Source of the DNA: Paenibacillus sp. FSL R7-0345
GTDB lineage: Bacteria; Bacillota; Bacilli; Paenibacillales; Paenibacillaceae
Assembly: GCF_038595055.1 (NCBI RefSeq)
Contig: NZ_CP152002.1
Location: 2,090,501-2,154,500, forward strand
Length of the DNA: 64,000 bases
Direction: 5' to 3'
The notes beneath the pieces are model-generated. The model saw nothing but the letters and a program-made list of their open reading frames with translations, was not told the DNA's origin and ran no database searches. Both the position numbers and the translations under genes were made by a program. This document shows, in pieces, positions 42,610 to 64,000 of the stretch. How positions within the stretch are numbered: the first letter of the stretch is position 1; each line of letters starts with the position of its first letter.

Positions 42610-43200
42610 CTACATAAACTTCCGCTGCACCTTTTTCCCGTCATAGGTAAAGAGGGCTTTTTTGTCTTCAACGACAGTCTGCAGATGAACGGTGCGTCCC
42701 CAGAGGGAGTAGATATGCGGGAGGGTGCGCTCCAGATATTTCAGGTCAAGCTCGATGCTCTCGTAGCGGTGGGCGATCAGCAGCTCGCCGTTGCGCTCAT
42801 AGTCGGCATCCTGGATGACGAGGTAAGGAGAGCCTCCGTTGACCCGGGCCAGCACGAGCTGGTCACGGACATTTTCCCAGGCTTTGTCGGTGATTTTCCA
42901 CTCCGGGCCTTTTTTCTCGAATACATAGAGGTCAAGGTCGTTAACCAGCTGCTTCGACAGATAGCTGCGGATGAAGGAAATGTCGGAGTCGAGCTCGCGT
43001 ACCTCGAACATTTTGTCACGGTCCCAGCGGCGTTCGATGTCTTCGAAGATCTTCAGGCCAAGATAATAAGGGTTCAGGCTTTGGCGTGACGGCTGCACGA
43101 CAGACGAGTTGAGCTTGGAGTACTCGATCGTTTCCTCCGAAGTCAGGTCCAGCTCGCGCATGATCCGCTGATGCCAGTAGGAGGCCCAGCCTTCGTATTG
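42610..43200 (-). pseudogene. spoVR: spoVR, C-terminal part, separated from the rest by the 20.4-kb element
   Basis: About 196 codons open from 43200 (a TAG precedes at 43201-43203). From the element edge it reads EGWASYWHQRIMRELDLTSE, then LNSSVVQPSRQSLNPYYLGLKIFEDI, the conserved C-terminal half of SpoVR, a protein linked to spore cortex formation. The first ATG (43161) has no ribosome site, so no useful product is expected while the element is in place. The frame joins exactly to the N-terminal part at 63508-64000 if the interval between the two 11-bp repeats is removed. I call it interrupted rather than dead, because the sequence is intact at both ends. Confidence 0.93.
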
Positions 43201-43214
43201 CTAAGGTGCTTTAC
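43184..43214. other. Left attachment site (attL) of the spoVR element
   Basis: The direct repeat GCCCAGCCTTC (43184-43194) continues into the element as CTTCGTAT...AAGGTGCTT (43191-43211), the inverted partner of the right end. It also includes the stop of the 816-residue gene (43201-43203). Confidence 0.85.
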
Positions 43215-45651
43215 TTGTTCTAATTTTTCTAGATGAGATTTGTGATGTAGCTGAGGTTTCTTTAAACGTTTGATGAAGTGTCTGTAAATGATTGTAAAAA
43301 TAATGTTTACCCATTTTTGAACCCATGTCGTAATAATTTAAATATAAATCAGTATCATGCTTTCTTTGCAAATAGAAGCGGGCTAGTTCGTAATAATATC
43401 GTTGTTTTAAGTTATGCTCATCATCAGGATGATCTTGAATAACATTTTTTATTGAAAGCTCATAAAAATACTTACCTTGTTTCTCACATTCCTCTATATC
43501 TAAACAGGAATTTCTAAAATACCATAGACCCATTGTGGCGTAAGCGAAGGAATCGCATTTATCATATTTTAAGCAAACATCTAAAAAGTGTTTTGAAGCT
43601 CTAAACGACTGATTTTCAATCAGCTCATGAGATACTTGGTTTAAATATTGAGTGAAATTATAAAATAATTCTTCATTATTAGCTAACAGGTAATTGTTTA
43701 ATGAATCCATATTAGCAGTAATGACACCAGAATTAGCGATTGCTTTCGAAATTCCAAACTCTCCTTGGATTATATTGTGAAAGTTTGAATTTTCAGAAAG
43801 TGATAATTCTTTATAAATATTCATTATTTCTAAATTTTCGGTTCTTGGCGAATCATTTTTAGATTCCTTTATAACTAAATTAAGCAAAAATGTATTTGAA
43901 TTACCTTTTATTGATTCTGTATAGATCTGATTATACAAAGGTAATCCTATCAAAAGTTGGTCATAACCAAAATTTAGACGGAAAAAAATTTTGCACTTGT
44001 CCACATAAAGATAAGGAAAATCACTTTCTATCTCAAATTTTTCTGCGATATCCCTTAAAAGTGTTGATATAATCCATGCATTTCTATCTATAATTGAGTT
44101 ATTCATAGAACTGATGGTTTCAATTTTTAAGGAATCATGAGTTTTAGCCTTGTTTGTATATTTTGGAAATGAGATACATAATTTCGGGGTATAATCAACG
44201 TTTTTAAAGTCACGATGATTATTGAATAATGATTTTGAAAAATGATCGAACACATCAATAAGGTCGTTTTCTGTGATAATTTGATGTTTTGCAGAATTTT
44301 CATTGACCCAAATTGTCCATCTACCCTCTTTATCAAGGTGTACGTTCACGGCAATAGGTAAGGGATCAAGTAGCTCATAAATGTAATATTTCAATCTGTT
44401 TGTAATATTTGGTGTGAAGTTCATAGTGAATATAATATCTTCATAACTGAATTGCCCATCTAAATGCAAGGCAGTCATAAATAAATAACAATCCAACCCA
44501 TGTATTGCTTCTTTTAAATCAATATCAAAGTAAGTCTTCTCTATATCCTTAGAAGGTTGATCGAGAACCTGTTTATTTGATTCTGATTTAGGAGGTTTAG
44601 GTTTTATATCATCCACAGAGAGTTTTTCTTCACCTTTGGAAAAGGAAATTAATTCACATTGCTTATACAATTGCTGAATAACATTTAAGAGTAAACTAAC
44701 TTCTCTTGTTGAGGTTTTAATTTCGAAATCATAATCATAGTCAGCCGTTTGTCTTAACCAGTATAATCGTAAGGCAATAATAAAAAAAGAAAAGATAATG
44801 GATTCTTCTTCAGTTTTAGCGTCAAGAATAGATCTATAGGAAAATGCGATGCAAGCCTTAACTTCTGCTTCTTGTTTAGCGCCTTTCTCCCTAGGTCTAT
44901 TCTTAATTGCTGACTCAATAAAATCATCAATATTATTTATAGAATCGTCAGTTAATTCTTTACCGAATAGTTCCTTATATAAGAAATACAGATAAGGATT
45001 GATATAATTGGCGATTGTAATACTTGTATCAAAAAGTACAATTGGAAGAATTTTAAATGGATTTGCTCCTTTTTTCTTAGTTGTAGAGAGAACATTTGAA
45101 TAATTTTCTTTGTTTACATCAGTAACTTTGAATTCAGATAAATTAAAGTGCTTTCTGTAAATGTCGTTAAAAAACACCTCGCTTGTAAAATGTTCAACTT
45201 CGTTAAAATAAACTGCATGCTCGTCGACTTCTATTTTTTCAGACAGGTATTGAAACATTTTTCCTGTGGTGAAATTATGTAGGGAATAATACAGTAAACT
45301 TACACTTGCACGTAAATCCTTACCCAATAATCTAGAAGTAGATAATTCTATTTTTTCTCTTGAGTTGCTAATATATATTTCAGATCTCTGGGCAATTAAT
45401 TTGTAAATCCTTTTTTTATGTTTCTCAGTGATTTCTGGTGAAAGAGAAGGAAAAAATGAAATAATGTTATTAGATATCTCTAATACACTTTTTTTTGGAT
45501 TTATTAGTTTTATTGCATTCATTCCTATATGCTGTTCAGGATATTCATCATTAAATTCTTTTATAATCCGTACTTTTGCATAAATACTCAAGTTTTTAGT
45601 TTCAAAGATTGTAGCACCATTCTCATTGCGGAAAGTAAGCACTTCATTCAA
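43201..45651 (-). CDS. Unknown 816-residue element protein
   Basis: I do not recognise a family. The protein is soluble-looking, Lys/Asn/Ile-rich and AT-rich in its DNA. Around residues 340-375 is a polar linker (KPKPPKSESNKQ), dividing it into two halves; the last 170 residues (ASKHFLDVCLKYDKCDSFAYATMGLWYFRNSCLDIEECEKQGKYFYELS..., YYYELARFYLQR) have the helix-pair look of TPR repeats. Its stop codon TAG is at 43201-43203, within the attachment arm, so the gene runs right to the element edge, towards the C-terminal part of spoVR and with no terminator between. It may be a host-interaction or defence protein; no function is assigned. Confidence 0.8.
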   Translation of the reverse strand: MNEVLTFRNENGATIFETKNLSIYAKVRIIKEFNDEYPEQHIGMNAIKLINPKKSVLEISNNIISFFPSLSPEITEKHKKRIYKLIAQRSEIYISNSREKIELSTSRLLGKDLRASVSLLYYSLHNFTTGKMFQYLSEKIEVDEHAVYFNEVEHFTSEVFFNDIYRKHFNLSEFKVTDVNKENYSNVLSTTKKKGANPFKILPIVLFDTSITIANYINPYLYFLYKELFGKELTDDSINNIDDFIESAIKNRPREKGAKQEAEVKACIAFSYRSILDAKTEEESIIFSFFIIALRLYWLRQTADYDYDFEIKTSTREVSLLLNVIQQLYKQCELISFSKGEEKLSVDDIKPKPPKSESNKQVLDQPSKDIEKTYFDIDLKEAIHGLDCYLFMTALHLDGQFSYEDIIFTMNFTPNITNRLKYYIYELLDPLPIAVNVHLDKEGRWTIWVNENSAKHQIITENDLIDVFDHFSKSLFNNHRDFKNVDYTPKLCISFPKYTNKAKTHDSLKIETISSMNNSIIDRNAWIISTLLRDIAEKFEIESDFPYLYVDKCKIFFRLNFGYDQLLIGLPLYNQIYTESIKGNSNTFLLNLVIKESKNDSPRTENLEIMNIYKELSLSENSNFHNIIQGEFGISKAIANSGVITANMDSLNNYLLANNEELFYNFTQYLNQVSHELIENQSFRASKHFLDVCLKYDKCDSFAYATMGLWYFRNSCLDIEECEKQGKYFYELSIKNVIQDHPDDEHNLKQRYYYELARFYLQRKHDTDLYLNYYDMGSKMGKHYFYNHLQTLHQTFKETSATSQISSRKIRTSKAP

Positions 45652-45825
45652 CCTAAAATCCCCCCATAAAAAATCGCGAGTGTTTTTTGAATGTATTCAT
45701 CAATAAAAAATGAATTGAATTAATAATTCGACGTAAAACATAAATAAACCTTTTTACCAATGGGAAGAAAAAAAGTATATACTGTCAACTTTTCGCTTTT
45801 ACAATTTATGCGTTAATAATCGTAC

Positions 45826-63533: not shown

Positions 63534-63580
63534 AAAAAAGCTCTCCAAAACGATGCTTATCGTTCCTGGAGAGCCTTTTT
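63534..63580. terminator. Strong bidirectional terminator inside the element's right end
   Basis: GCTCTCCA (63540-63547) pairs with TGGAGAGC (63567-63574), with inner AACGAT/ATCGTT around a GCTT loop; A-run on the left, TTTTT on the right. On the minus strand it would end spoVR transcripts about 25 bases after they enter the element. Confidence 0.85.
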
Positions 63581-63582
63581 GC

Positions 63583-63615
63583 GTAAGCACCTTGAGGATA
63601 CGAAGCCCAGCCTTC
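63583..63615. other. Right attachment site (attR) of the spoVR element
   Basis: Element arm GTAAGCACCTT...ATACGAAG (63583-63605) joins the direct repeat GCCCAGCCTTC (63605-63615), which continues into spoVR. The arm is the inverted partner of the left arm (17 of 21 aligned positions identical). Confidence 0.85.
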
Positions 63616-64000
63616 ATTCATGATTTTCGTCTCCATCTGCGGCCAGAAATAGAGCATTTCATCGCGCAGCATGGTCATAATATCGCGCTGCCAATCCTCG
63701 AGAGTGGTCGAATATTGCTGGATGAACCAGACAATATCCTTTTCCGGCTCAGGCGGGAAGGCCCGTTTGGCGGCAACATCCGGCTCCTGGGGACCGGCTT
63801 TGGCCTGATCGAGCTTCCAGAGCTCGCTGTAGGCATTGTCCTCAGGAGGCTTGCCGGCCTGCACATCTTTGTTGGCTCTCATCTTGGCTTCCAGCAGATC
63901 GGTTTTGCCGAGCTTGCGCGGCTGGATCAGGCTGGGGTCGATATGCTCCTGGATGGCCAGCACCGAGTCAATGAACCGTTCCACCCGGTCAATGCCATAG

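What the first reader, a model, noticed from the sequence alone, without database searches (positions are those of the whole stretch)
42610..64000. A 20.4-kb element splits the sporulation gene spoVR, and its removal restores the frame exactly
Both halves of SpoVR are readable and intact at the break. Joining them at the 11-bp direct repeat (43184-43194 / 63605-63615) gives KIMNEGWASYWHQRIMREL without a frameshift; the offset of 20,421 bases is divisible by 3. Known precedents are the sigK skin element and other intervening elements that leave sporulation genes in the mother cell. I do not know of a well-described case for this exact gene and cargo, so it may be a new developmental rearrangement. 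Regulated excision is inference.
Basis: partly seen in the sequence, partly recalled or inferred. Interest (0 to 1): 0.95.

Follow-up and report, generated by a model that had tools for sequence, protein, structure and literature searches.

The report
Defence island splitting sporulation gene spoVR
A 20-kb DNA element carrying a restriction-modification system cuts the only copy of the spore gene spoVR in two in a Paenibacillus genome, and it is predicted to remove itself during spore formation; relatives of its likely integrase lie in elements that break spoVR at the same codon in at least 13 genera of spore-forming bacteria.

Summary
The genome's only spoVR is broken by a 20.4-kb element, and joining the halves at the 11-bp repeat gives one open frame. 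The element carries three large serine recombinases and a type I restriction-modification system, with ends like a serine-integrase attP. LSR1 (45826-47283) is the likely integrase: 24 of 29 named loci with a 53-96% identical relative hold a spoVR piece; the other 5 stretches may not reach it. In the host's taxonomic family 15 of 388 genomes carry LSR1 at 62% or more, and all 15 have this insertion or its remains. Excision in sporulation is inferred: many LSR1 relatives have a sigma-E-type promoter like spoVR's own, beside a small divergent gene that may encode the directionality factor. In four clear cases where LSR1 is broken or missing, spoVR is restored; a fifth genome is unresolved. Not found in the papers searched: the spoVR-dedicated family (defence-like cargo in 15 of 16 elements examined) and its variants, patched by a duplicated 3' half or carrying a spare spoVR. 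No excision product was seen.

The parts
63508..64000 (-). 5' part of spoVR (continues beyond the window); after the 11-bp core it runs into element sequence and stops at 63508
   Evidence: PF04293 profile positions 145-271; rest in L003
42610..43194 (-). 3' part of spoVR
   Evidence: PF04293 profile positions 276-404 and SpoVR_C
63585..63640 (-). attL-type junction: spoVR, 11-bp core (63605-63615), then the element arm TTCGTATCCTCAAGGTGCTT
43165..43211 (-). attR-type junction: element arm AAGCACCTTAGCAATAC, 11-bp core (43184-43194), then spoVR
45826..47283 (-). LSR1: large serine recombinase, predicted integrase/excisionase of the element
   Evidence: Pfam Resolvase, Recombinase, Zn ribbon; linked to the spoVR site
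47313..47341 (-). predicted sigma-E-type promoter of LSR1 (TCGTAAA-N14-CATAGAAT); the -35 half is poor in the window, better in many relatives
47348..47357 (-). GAGGACAACC box in the divergent intergenic region, SpoIIID-like (8 of 9 scored positions of the recalled consensus); GGACAA recurs in relatives
47398..47640 (+). 80-aa protein divergent from LSR1; predicted recombination directionality factor (from position and recurrence only)
   Evidence: a small divergent ORF in 33 of 34 loci; 14-38% identity to the window's in the 14 relatives aligned; model pLDDT 83 without a fold match
47844..48188 (-). Xre-type HTH regulator of the recombination module
   Evidence: Pfam HTH_31/HTH_3; homologue in 14 of 16 elements, not in G286 or the contig-cut G089
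48388..49845 (+). LSR2: second serine recombinase
   Evidence: not found in every related element
49842..51404 (+). LSR3: third serine recombinase, overlapping LSR2 by 4 bp
   Evidence: not found in every related element
56917..60237 (+). HsdR, type I restriction subunit
60241..61725 (+). HsdM, type I methyltransferase subunit
61722..63185 (+). HsdS, type I specificity subunit
43201..45651 (-). 816-aa cargo protein of unknown family next to the attR-type end
   Evidence: no match in Pfam, PADLOC or PHROGs
63220..63495 (-). 91-aa protein next to the attL-type end, also at that end in G089, G091 and G286, and in remnants in G045 and G082
   Evidence: phrog_21859 of unknown function

Best explanation
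The window's only spoVR gene is split at the codons for MNEGWAS by a 20.4-kb element that was likely inserted by its own serine integrase LSR1 (45826-47283) and would be excised by the same enzyme in the mother cell during sporulation, restoring spoVR. Shown: the single split gene, in-frame joining, att-type ends, LSR1 with its expected domains, breaks at the same codon beside relatives of LSR1 in other genomes, and type I restriction-modification genes. Inferred: LSR1 as the enzyme (it is present in every element that I had complete, and one of these has no LSR2/LSR3); sigma-E/SpoIIID control of LSR1 and of the small divergent gene, from recurring promoter motifs; the small protein (47398-47640) as directionality factor; loss of the element only from the dying mother cell, so that the spore keeps it. 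The element is most simply read as a tolerated, likely horizontally moving cassette for defence genes rather than a switch needed by the host, because some lineages have a restored continuous spoVR beside a decayed element and others carry a spare spoVR inside the element.
For: One spoVR, split. 10 of 10 composites of split congeners join in frame at the same codon (G077 and G089 cut short by the fetched stretch). attP arms are inverted repeats in 14 of 14 elements (13-15 of 20 positions; at most 3 of 1000 shuffles as good), the spoVR-side arms score 6-9. LSR1 at 62% or more in 15 of 388 genomes of the taxonomic family, all 15 with this insertion or its remains. In named genomes 24 of 29 loci with an LSR1 relative hold a SpoVR piece (23 ending at this codon; in L031 the fetched end is an uninterrupted inner copy), against 0 of 7 for LSRs under 41% identity. 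11 of 11 genomes that depend on rejoining keep LSR1 (G089's cut by a contig end); 4 of 4 with a restored spoVR and a second 3' copy have it broken or not found (Fisher p 0.0007; 0.0027 counting G189 as a dependent without LSR1; groups defined after looking). The pattern [TG][CA]AT-N17-CATA upstream of LSR1 in 13 of 22 divergent loci against 0.4 expected, maximum 3 in 200 shuffles; TCATACT-N14-CATATA-type sequence upstream of spoVR in 37 of 40 intact congeners (no shuffle control). Small divergent ORF in 33 of 34 loci. 3' half under the same constraint as in intact genes (mean omega 0.027 and 0.024).
Against: No excised circle (joined attP) in 100 genus genomes or in IMG/VR; that fits silence in growing cells but is no proof of excision. 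The per-sequence sigma-E score was under p 0.05 in only 4 of 34 loci (median 0.375), and the window's own LSR1 has a poor -35 (TCGTAAA) and does not match the pattern. Purifying selection on the 3' half may predate the insertion. The directionality-factor candidate is poorly conserved (14-38% to the window's) and has no convincing sequence or fold match. G189 is split with no LSR1 found, but its contig ends at the break.
Confidence: 0.8

Rival explanations
1. The element is a fixed island and spoVR is simply dead in this strain; nothing excises it.
For: No excision product was found in assemblies. 15 of 394 genomes of the taxonomic family have no SpoVR match, so the gene may be dispensable in some lineages.
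Against: 10 of 10 composites are still open and in frame; omega of the 3' half is 0.027 against 0.024 in intact genes; LSR1 is kept in 11 of 11 dependents and spoVR is restored in the 4 genomes where LSR1 is broken or not found (G189 unresolved).
Confidence: 0.12
2. LSR2 and LSR3, not LSR1, move the element in and out of spoVR.
For: They overlap as a pair with recombinase domains; such pairs move SCC elements (SCC and its ccr genes are discussed in PMC5595907, passage).
Against: G286's fully fetched element has only LSR1, and 7 further named loci show LSR1 without LSR2/LSR3 in the fetched stretch, plus the contig-cut L025. LSR1 is 94-96% identical between the window's element and those of G059 and G091, whose LSR2/LSR3 are only distantly alike to the window's. 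In gin, girAB was dispensable and only GirC of the three was needed (PMC5595907).
Confidence: 0.06
3. The host gains from the split: excision acts as a timer that keeps SpoVR off until the right moment, as proposed for gin.
For: Suggested for gerE in the discussion of PMC5595907 (passage). LSR1 relatives and spoVR appear to share a promoter type.
Against: Insertions are scattered, 10 changes for 10 split genomes on a 50-row tree; 4 genomes have a restored continuous gene; three examined elements carry a complete spare spoVR.
Confidence: 0.1

Closest known systems
vrin, the spoVR-intervening element of Geobacillus thermoglucosidasius C56-YS93 (Abe 2013, not seen; cited in PMC4191935, passages)
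   Same: Same host gene; PMC4191935 counts it among elements still excised under developmental control. Three named Geobacillus genomes carry LSR1 relatives of 68-69% identity, two of them with a spoVR 3' piece starting at this codon.
   Different: vrin is said to carry phage-related genes; the window's 10 scanned cargo proteins matched no phage family of known function. I did not obtain the vrin sequence, so identity of site and integrase is untested. (PMC6957869, passage, places the spoVR case in B. weihenstephanensis instead.)
gin, the gerE-intervening element of Bacillus cereus ATCC10987 (PMC5595907; parts 1-3 of 6 and passages read)
   Same: Non-phage island of comparable size (28.6 kb) with three serine recombinases (a pair plus a separate one), a restriction-modification system, short core with inverted arms, small directionality protein; the separate recombinase is more conserved than the pair.
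   Different: Different target gene and core; GirX is 42 aa against 80 aa here; gin has a recJ homologue; no GirA/B/C sequence was compared.
skin in sigK (Bacillus subtilis, Clostridioides difficile)
   Same: Sporulation gene split by an element with a serine recombinase; in B. subtilis SpoIIID activates spoIVCA (PMC517825, passages) and in C. difficile sigma-E and SpoIIID control the directionality factor (PMC5025042, passages).
   Different: Target is sigK and the elements are prophage-like.
SP-beta in spsM with SprA/SprB
   Same: LSR1 matches the solved SP-beta integrase YokA chains (9dxh, 9dxd), among the best PDB matches.
   Different: SP-beta is an active prophage; only a distant sequence relation.

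Membership tests
Sporulation-gene intervening element | Sporulation gene split by an element with direct-repeat core; precise joining restores the frame | tested here: met
Sporulation-gene intervening element | Encodes its own site-specific recombinase | tested here: met
Sporulation-gene intervening element | Excision observed during sporulation | not testable with these tools
   needs DNA from sporulating cells
Sporulation-gene intervening element | Recombinase or directionality factor under mother-cell control | tested here: inconclusive
   motif enrichment across LSR1 relatives, same promoter type at spoVR, but weak per-sequence scores and a poor -35 in the window
gin-type (non-phage, three recombinases) | Three serine recombinases, two of them overlapping or adjacent | tested here: met
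gin-type (non-phage, three recombinases) | No phage-related genes apart from recombinases | tested here: met
   10 cargo proteins against PHROGs: two matches, both of unknown function; Hsd, HTH and recombinase proteins were not put to PHROGs
gin-type (non-phage, three recombinases) | Recombinases homologous to GirA, GirB, GirC | not tested
   no gin sequence obtained; plasmid searches with LSR2 and LSR3 gave only matches under 60% identity
gin-type (non-phage, three recombinases) | recJ homologue (conserved in the B. cereus gin elements) | tested here: not met
   no RecJ match among the element proteins put to Pfam
vrin (same site and integrase) | Insertion in spoVR | tested here: met
vrin (same site and integrase) | Same codon and orthologous integrase | not tested
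   I did not look up the C56-YS93 record; the LSR1 scan of named genomes listed no G. thermoglucosidasius
Large serine integrase att system | attP arms inverted around a short core shared with attB | tested here: met
   14 of 14 elements

The most novel reading that the evidence does not exclude
spoVR is a developmental safe harbour for mobile immunity: a lineage of spoVR-specific integrases, transcribed from the same type of mother-cell promoter as spoVR, carries interchangeable defence islands (type I restriction-modification, Wadjet, GmrSD, Lamassu-like, SIR2) through Bacillales. The mother cell throws its island away and the spore keeps it. Some of these elements have escaped dependence on excision by carrying a spare spoVR whose attB sequence is altered.
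Probability: 0.55. Interest if true: 0.78.

Novelty: new variant of a known kind. Interest (0 to 1): 0.62.

Why it matters
It ties two fields together: hotspots for phage-defence islands and developmental DNA rearrangement in spore formers. The natural variants (excision-dependent, patched, spare copy) make a standing question testable, namely whether genes split by such elements serve the host or are merely tolerated. The family also offers a set of serine integrases with a defined attB in a widely kept gene and a candidate directionality factor.

Tried and rejected
Directionality factor by structure: the AlphaFold model of the small protein (pLDDT 83, pTM 0.56) had no PDB match with E under 0.001, and a profile search of PDB sequences gave four hits, none below E 0.25. 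Joined attP in 100 genus genomes (two mismatches allowed) and in IMG/VR (exact pattern): none. Sigma-E score per sequence: p under 0.05 in 4 of 34; the multi-locus pattern test uses a pattern taken from the recalled consensus but chosen after looking at the sequences, and the loci are related, so shuffles overstate independence. IMG/VR scan with LSR1: mostly distant LSRs, not followed. LSR2/LSR3 against plasmids and LSR1 against phages: all matches under 60% identity. Selection test on the 3' half: agrees with function but cannot separate time before and after insertion; undefined omega values (one in each half) were left out of the means. Rows dropped before the promoter counts: near-copies L032, L035, L052 and truncated G067; G046, G089b and L025 gave no usable start. 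The 22-locus subset drops further near-copies; all 34 give 20 against 0.6.

Not counted in the Fisher test: genomes with an intact spoVR and older, degenerate remnants at this site (G045, G082, G213, G372), which fit the same story but whose second 3' copy is absent or broken.

The sigma-E and SpoIIID consensus letters are recalled; in PMC517825 I saw only passages, which present them as figures. Literature: nine library searches. Those with spoVR as a term (7, 23, 31, 32, 76) listed no account of a spoVR-dedicated family beyond vrin in open-access text; the list was capped at 12 papers, and subscription papers, among them Abe 2013, were not seen. Papers: PMC5595907 parts 1-3 of 6 and passages; PMC4191935, PMC5025042, PMC6957869, PMC517825 and PMC10747680 passages only.
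Full report
OBSERVATION. The repeat GAAGGCTGGGC (on the minus strand) lies at 43184-43194 and 63605-63615. The flanks are two parts of one SpoVR gene. The genome is one contig of 6.98 Mb and has no other SpoVR match. Joined at the repeat, the gene is one open frame. The genome itself is unnamed; its genus is taken from congeners identified below.

ANATOMY OF THE ELEMENT. Inside lie three large serine recombinases: LSR1 45826-47283 (minus), LSR2 48388-49845 and LSR3 49842-51404 (plus, overlapping by 4 bp). 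Next to LSR1 are a divergent 80-aa gene (47398-47640) and an Xre-type regulator (47844-48188). Near the 5' half of spoVR lies a type I restriction-modification operon, hsdR-hsdM-hsdS (56917-63185). Ten other cargo proteins gave two PHROGs matches, both of unknown function.

ATTACHMENT SITES. In attP order the ends read AAGCACCTTAGCAATAC, core GAAGGCTGGGC, TTCGTATCCTCAAGGTGCTT. The two arms are inverted repeats in 14 of 14 elements compared (13-15 of 20 positions), while the spoVR-side arms score 6-9. That is the usual arrangement for a serine integrase (established knowledge). The axis falls in the core at GAAGGC-TG-GGC, so TG is the predicted crossover dinucleotide (inference).

THE SAME CODON IN MANY GENOMES. 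Of 100 genomes of the genus, all have SpoVR. Nine (G000, G036, G058, G059, G077, G078, G089, G091, G097) have only a split gene, broken at the same place; G093 is split but carries a full copy inside the element; G046 and G067 have a whole gene plus a second 3' half. G045 and G082 have an intact gene beside older remnants. 10 of 10 composites from split congeners are in frame (G077 and G089 cut short by the fetched stretch). In the wider taxonomic family 379 of 394 genomes have SpoVR. Genomes with unusual matches were looked at again by handle (16, 18): further same-site cases are G129, G286, G189, G255, G351, and restored genes in G100 and G300. Not every multi-match genome was resolved, so these are minimum numbers. 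By equal contig lengths, G089 is an uncultured Paenibacillus (OKU20), G091 Paenibacillus tengchongensis, G036 P. mangrovi, G078 Paenibacillus sp. PastM-3, G129 Cohnella sp. WQ 127256 and G286 P. selenitireducens.

LSR1 BELONGS TO THIS SITE. A scan of named genomes gave 36 loci: 29 at 53-96% identity and 7 at 29-40%. 24 of the 29 hold a SpoVR piece in the fetched stretch, from 13 genera as named in the records: Paenibacillus, Geobacillus, Schinkia, Calidifontibacillus, Bacillus, Peribacillus, Cohnella, Lysinibacillus, Rossellomorea, Brevibacillus, Fictibacillus, Anaerobacillus, Ornithinibacillus. In 23 of the 24 the piece ends at this codon; in the 24th (L031) it is an uninterrupted inner copy at the edge of the stretch. 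In the other 5 (L027, L028, L040, L046, L048) no SpoVR piece was found; they lie on short contigs or 10-kb flanks that may not reach an element end. None of the 7 distant LSRs has a SpoVR piece in its stretch. In the taxonomic family 15 of 388 genomes have LSR1 at 62% or more, and all 15 have this insertion or its remains; three more genomes match at 36-39%. G089 was found separately. LSR2/LSR3 are optional: G286's whole element lacks them, and 7 other named loci, plus the contig-cut L025, show none in the fetched stretch (some flank-limited). LSR1 is 94-96% identical between the window's element and those of G059 and G091, whose LSR2/LSR3 are only distantly alike to the window's; in G077 and G097 the pair is close too.

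HORIZONTAL SPREAD. On a spoVR tree of 50 rows (10 split, 40 chosen intact) the split genomes need 10 changes, no fewer than shuffled labels (mean 9.2). G000 and G078 have spoVR 93.6% identical but LSR1 only 66.7%; G078 and G093 have LSR1 96.4% and spoVR 87.3%. Separate acquisitions at one site explain this best.

DEVELOPMENTAL CONTROL (inferred). In 34 upstream regions of LSR1, the geometry of a sigma-E promoter ([TG][CA]AT, 17 bases, CATA; consensus recalled) occurs in 20, against 0.6 in shuffles; in 22 divergent ones, 13 against 0.4, maximum 3 of 200. GGACAA, the core of a SpoIIID-like site (recalled consensus), occurs in 14 of 22 upstream of position -60, against 0.6. spoVR itself carries TCATACT-N14-CATATA-type sequence in 37 of 40 intact congeners (no shuffle control), and TCATACT-N14-CATATACT in the window's genome. 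Against this: a per-sequence sigma-E score had p under 0.05 in only 4 of 34, the pattern was fixed after seeing the sequences, and the window's own LSR1 has TCGTAAA-N14-CATAGAAT (47313-47341), with a good -10 and a poor -35. In skin, SpoIIID switches on the recombinase gene (PMC517825, passages); in C. difficile sigma-E and SpoIIID control the directionality factor (PMC5025042, passages).

DIRECTIONALITY FACTOR CANDIDATE. A 65-117-aa divergent ORF (start codons uncertain) is beside LSR1 in 33 of 34 loci; in G058 a relative lies behind a partial LSR1 duplication. Similarity is low: 14-38% to the window's in 14 aligned relatives. It has no convincing known relative by PDB sequence or fold. The assignment rests on position and recurrence only.

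NATURAL EXPERIMENT. Eleven genomes depend on rejoining (G000, G036, G058, G059, G077, G078, G089, G091, G097, G129, G286) and all keep LSR1 (G089's is cut by a contig end). G286 is a special case: its 5' part also appears broken at a second site. Four genomes have a restored spoVR with a second 3' copy 95.2-98.6% identical; their LSR1 has stops (G046), lacks its first 73 residues (G067), or was not found (G100, G300). Fisher p is 0.0007, or 0.0027 if G189 is counted as a dependent without LSR1; the groups were defined after looking. G189's contig ends exactly at the break, so it is unresolved. Three more (G093, G255, G351) carry a complete spoVR just inside the attL end, and L031 shows an inner copy of the same kind at the edge of its stretch. 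In these copies the codons after the core read SFFHQ or TFFHQ instead of SYWHQ, which may protect them from integration (inference). G189 has a decayed copy of this kind.

CARGO. Of 16 elements looked at (15 in the taxonomic family plus L031), 12 have type I restriction-modification genes by homology to the window's; in G059, G089 and G091 the homology is weak, as to another type I family, and in G089 only hsdM and hsdS lie in the fetched piece. G058 has Wadjet JetABCD, GmrSD, Lamassu-like genes and an Argonaute-like fragment. G093 has close homologues of G058's Jet and GmrSD genes plus Hhe/PDC-S37-like and SIR2 proteins. G078 has a LmuB-like protein. G286 has a sugar-transport operon with a two-component system and no clear defence gene (one weak PADLOC match, in the response regulator). 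So 15 of 16 carry defence-like genes. Not every protein of every element was scanned, and cargo outside the Paenibacillaceae was not examined.

SELECTION. Mean omega of the 3' half is 0.027 for split genes against their nearest intact gene and 0.024 between nearest intact genes. This agrees with function but may reflect time before insertion.

KNOWN PRECEDENTS. vrin in spoVR of Geobacillus thermoglucosidasius is named in PMC4191935, where it is said to carry phage-related genes (passages). gin in gerE (PMC5595907, parts 1-3 and passages) has three serine recombinases, a restriction-modification system and no phage genes; GirC and the 42-aa GirX carry out excision in sporulation and GirAB are dispensable. 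The present element works like gin at a target known from vrin. Filing: a sporulation-gene intervening element by anatomy, with excision untested; not filed as gin, since no gin sequence was compared and no recJ was seen.

VERDICT. Real, well supported as a serine-integrase element, and likely excised in the mother cell. The kind is known. The spoVR-dedicated family with mostly defence-like cargo in the elements examined, and its patched and spare-copy variants, is the part that I did not find in print.

Noticed in passing
G198, G200, G257, G264, G265, G294, G336 (loci L185-L196, L199, L200): A second break site in spoVR near residue 58-64 in seven genomes of four genera; in 6 of 7 fetched stretches a different serine recombinase, about 30% identical to LSR1, lies just upstream of the 3' part. 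In the four genomes with both parts on one contig they are 36-52 kb apart.
   Followed up: partly
G286 (Paenibacillus selenitireducens, L030/L183): spoVR appears in three pieces, interrupted at both the second site and the window's site.
   Followed up: partly
G093, G255, G351, locus L031: Elements carry a complete (L031: partly fetched) spare spoVR whose sequence after the att core is altered (FFHQ for YWHQ), possibly giving immunity to the integrase.
   Followed up: partly
G036, G059, G078, G129 elements: Degenerate pieces of a second SpoVR C-terminal half lie inside the elements near one end, suggesting earlier patching or tandem insertions.
   Followed up: no
G166:C1:2969997-2970791: SpoVR profile positions 143-404 lie inside an open frame of 2079 codons, perhaps a fusion or a long overlapping frame.
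   Followed up: no
G357 and G354: Several SpoVR fragments in G357, and in G354 two full-length copies in tandem, suggesting repeated invasion or duplication.
   Followed up: no
window 43201-45651: 816-aa protein at the attR-type end with no match in Pfam, PADLOC or PHROGs; a possible unknown defence gene.
   Followed up: partly
viral contigs L061 and L062: IMG/VR contigs encode LSR1 relatives of 74% and 58% identity, so some of these elements may be filed as viruses.
   Followed up: no
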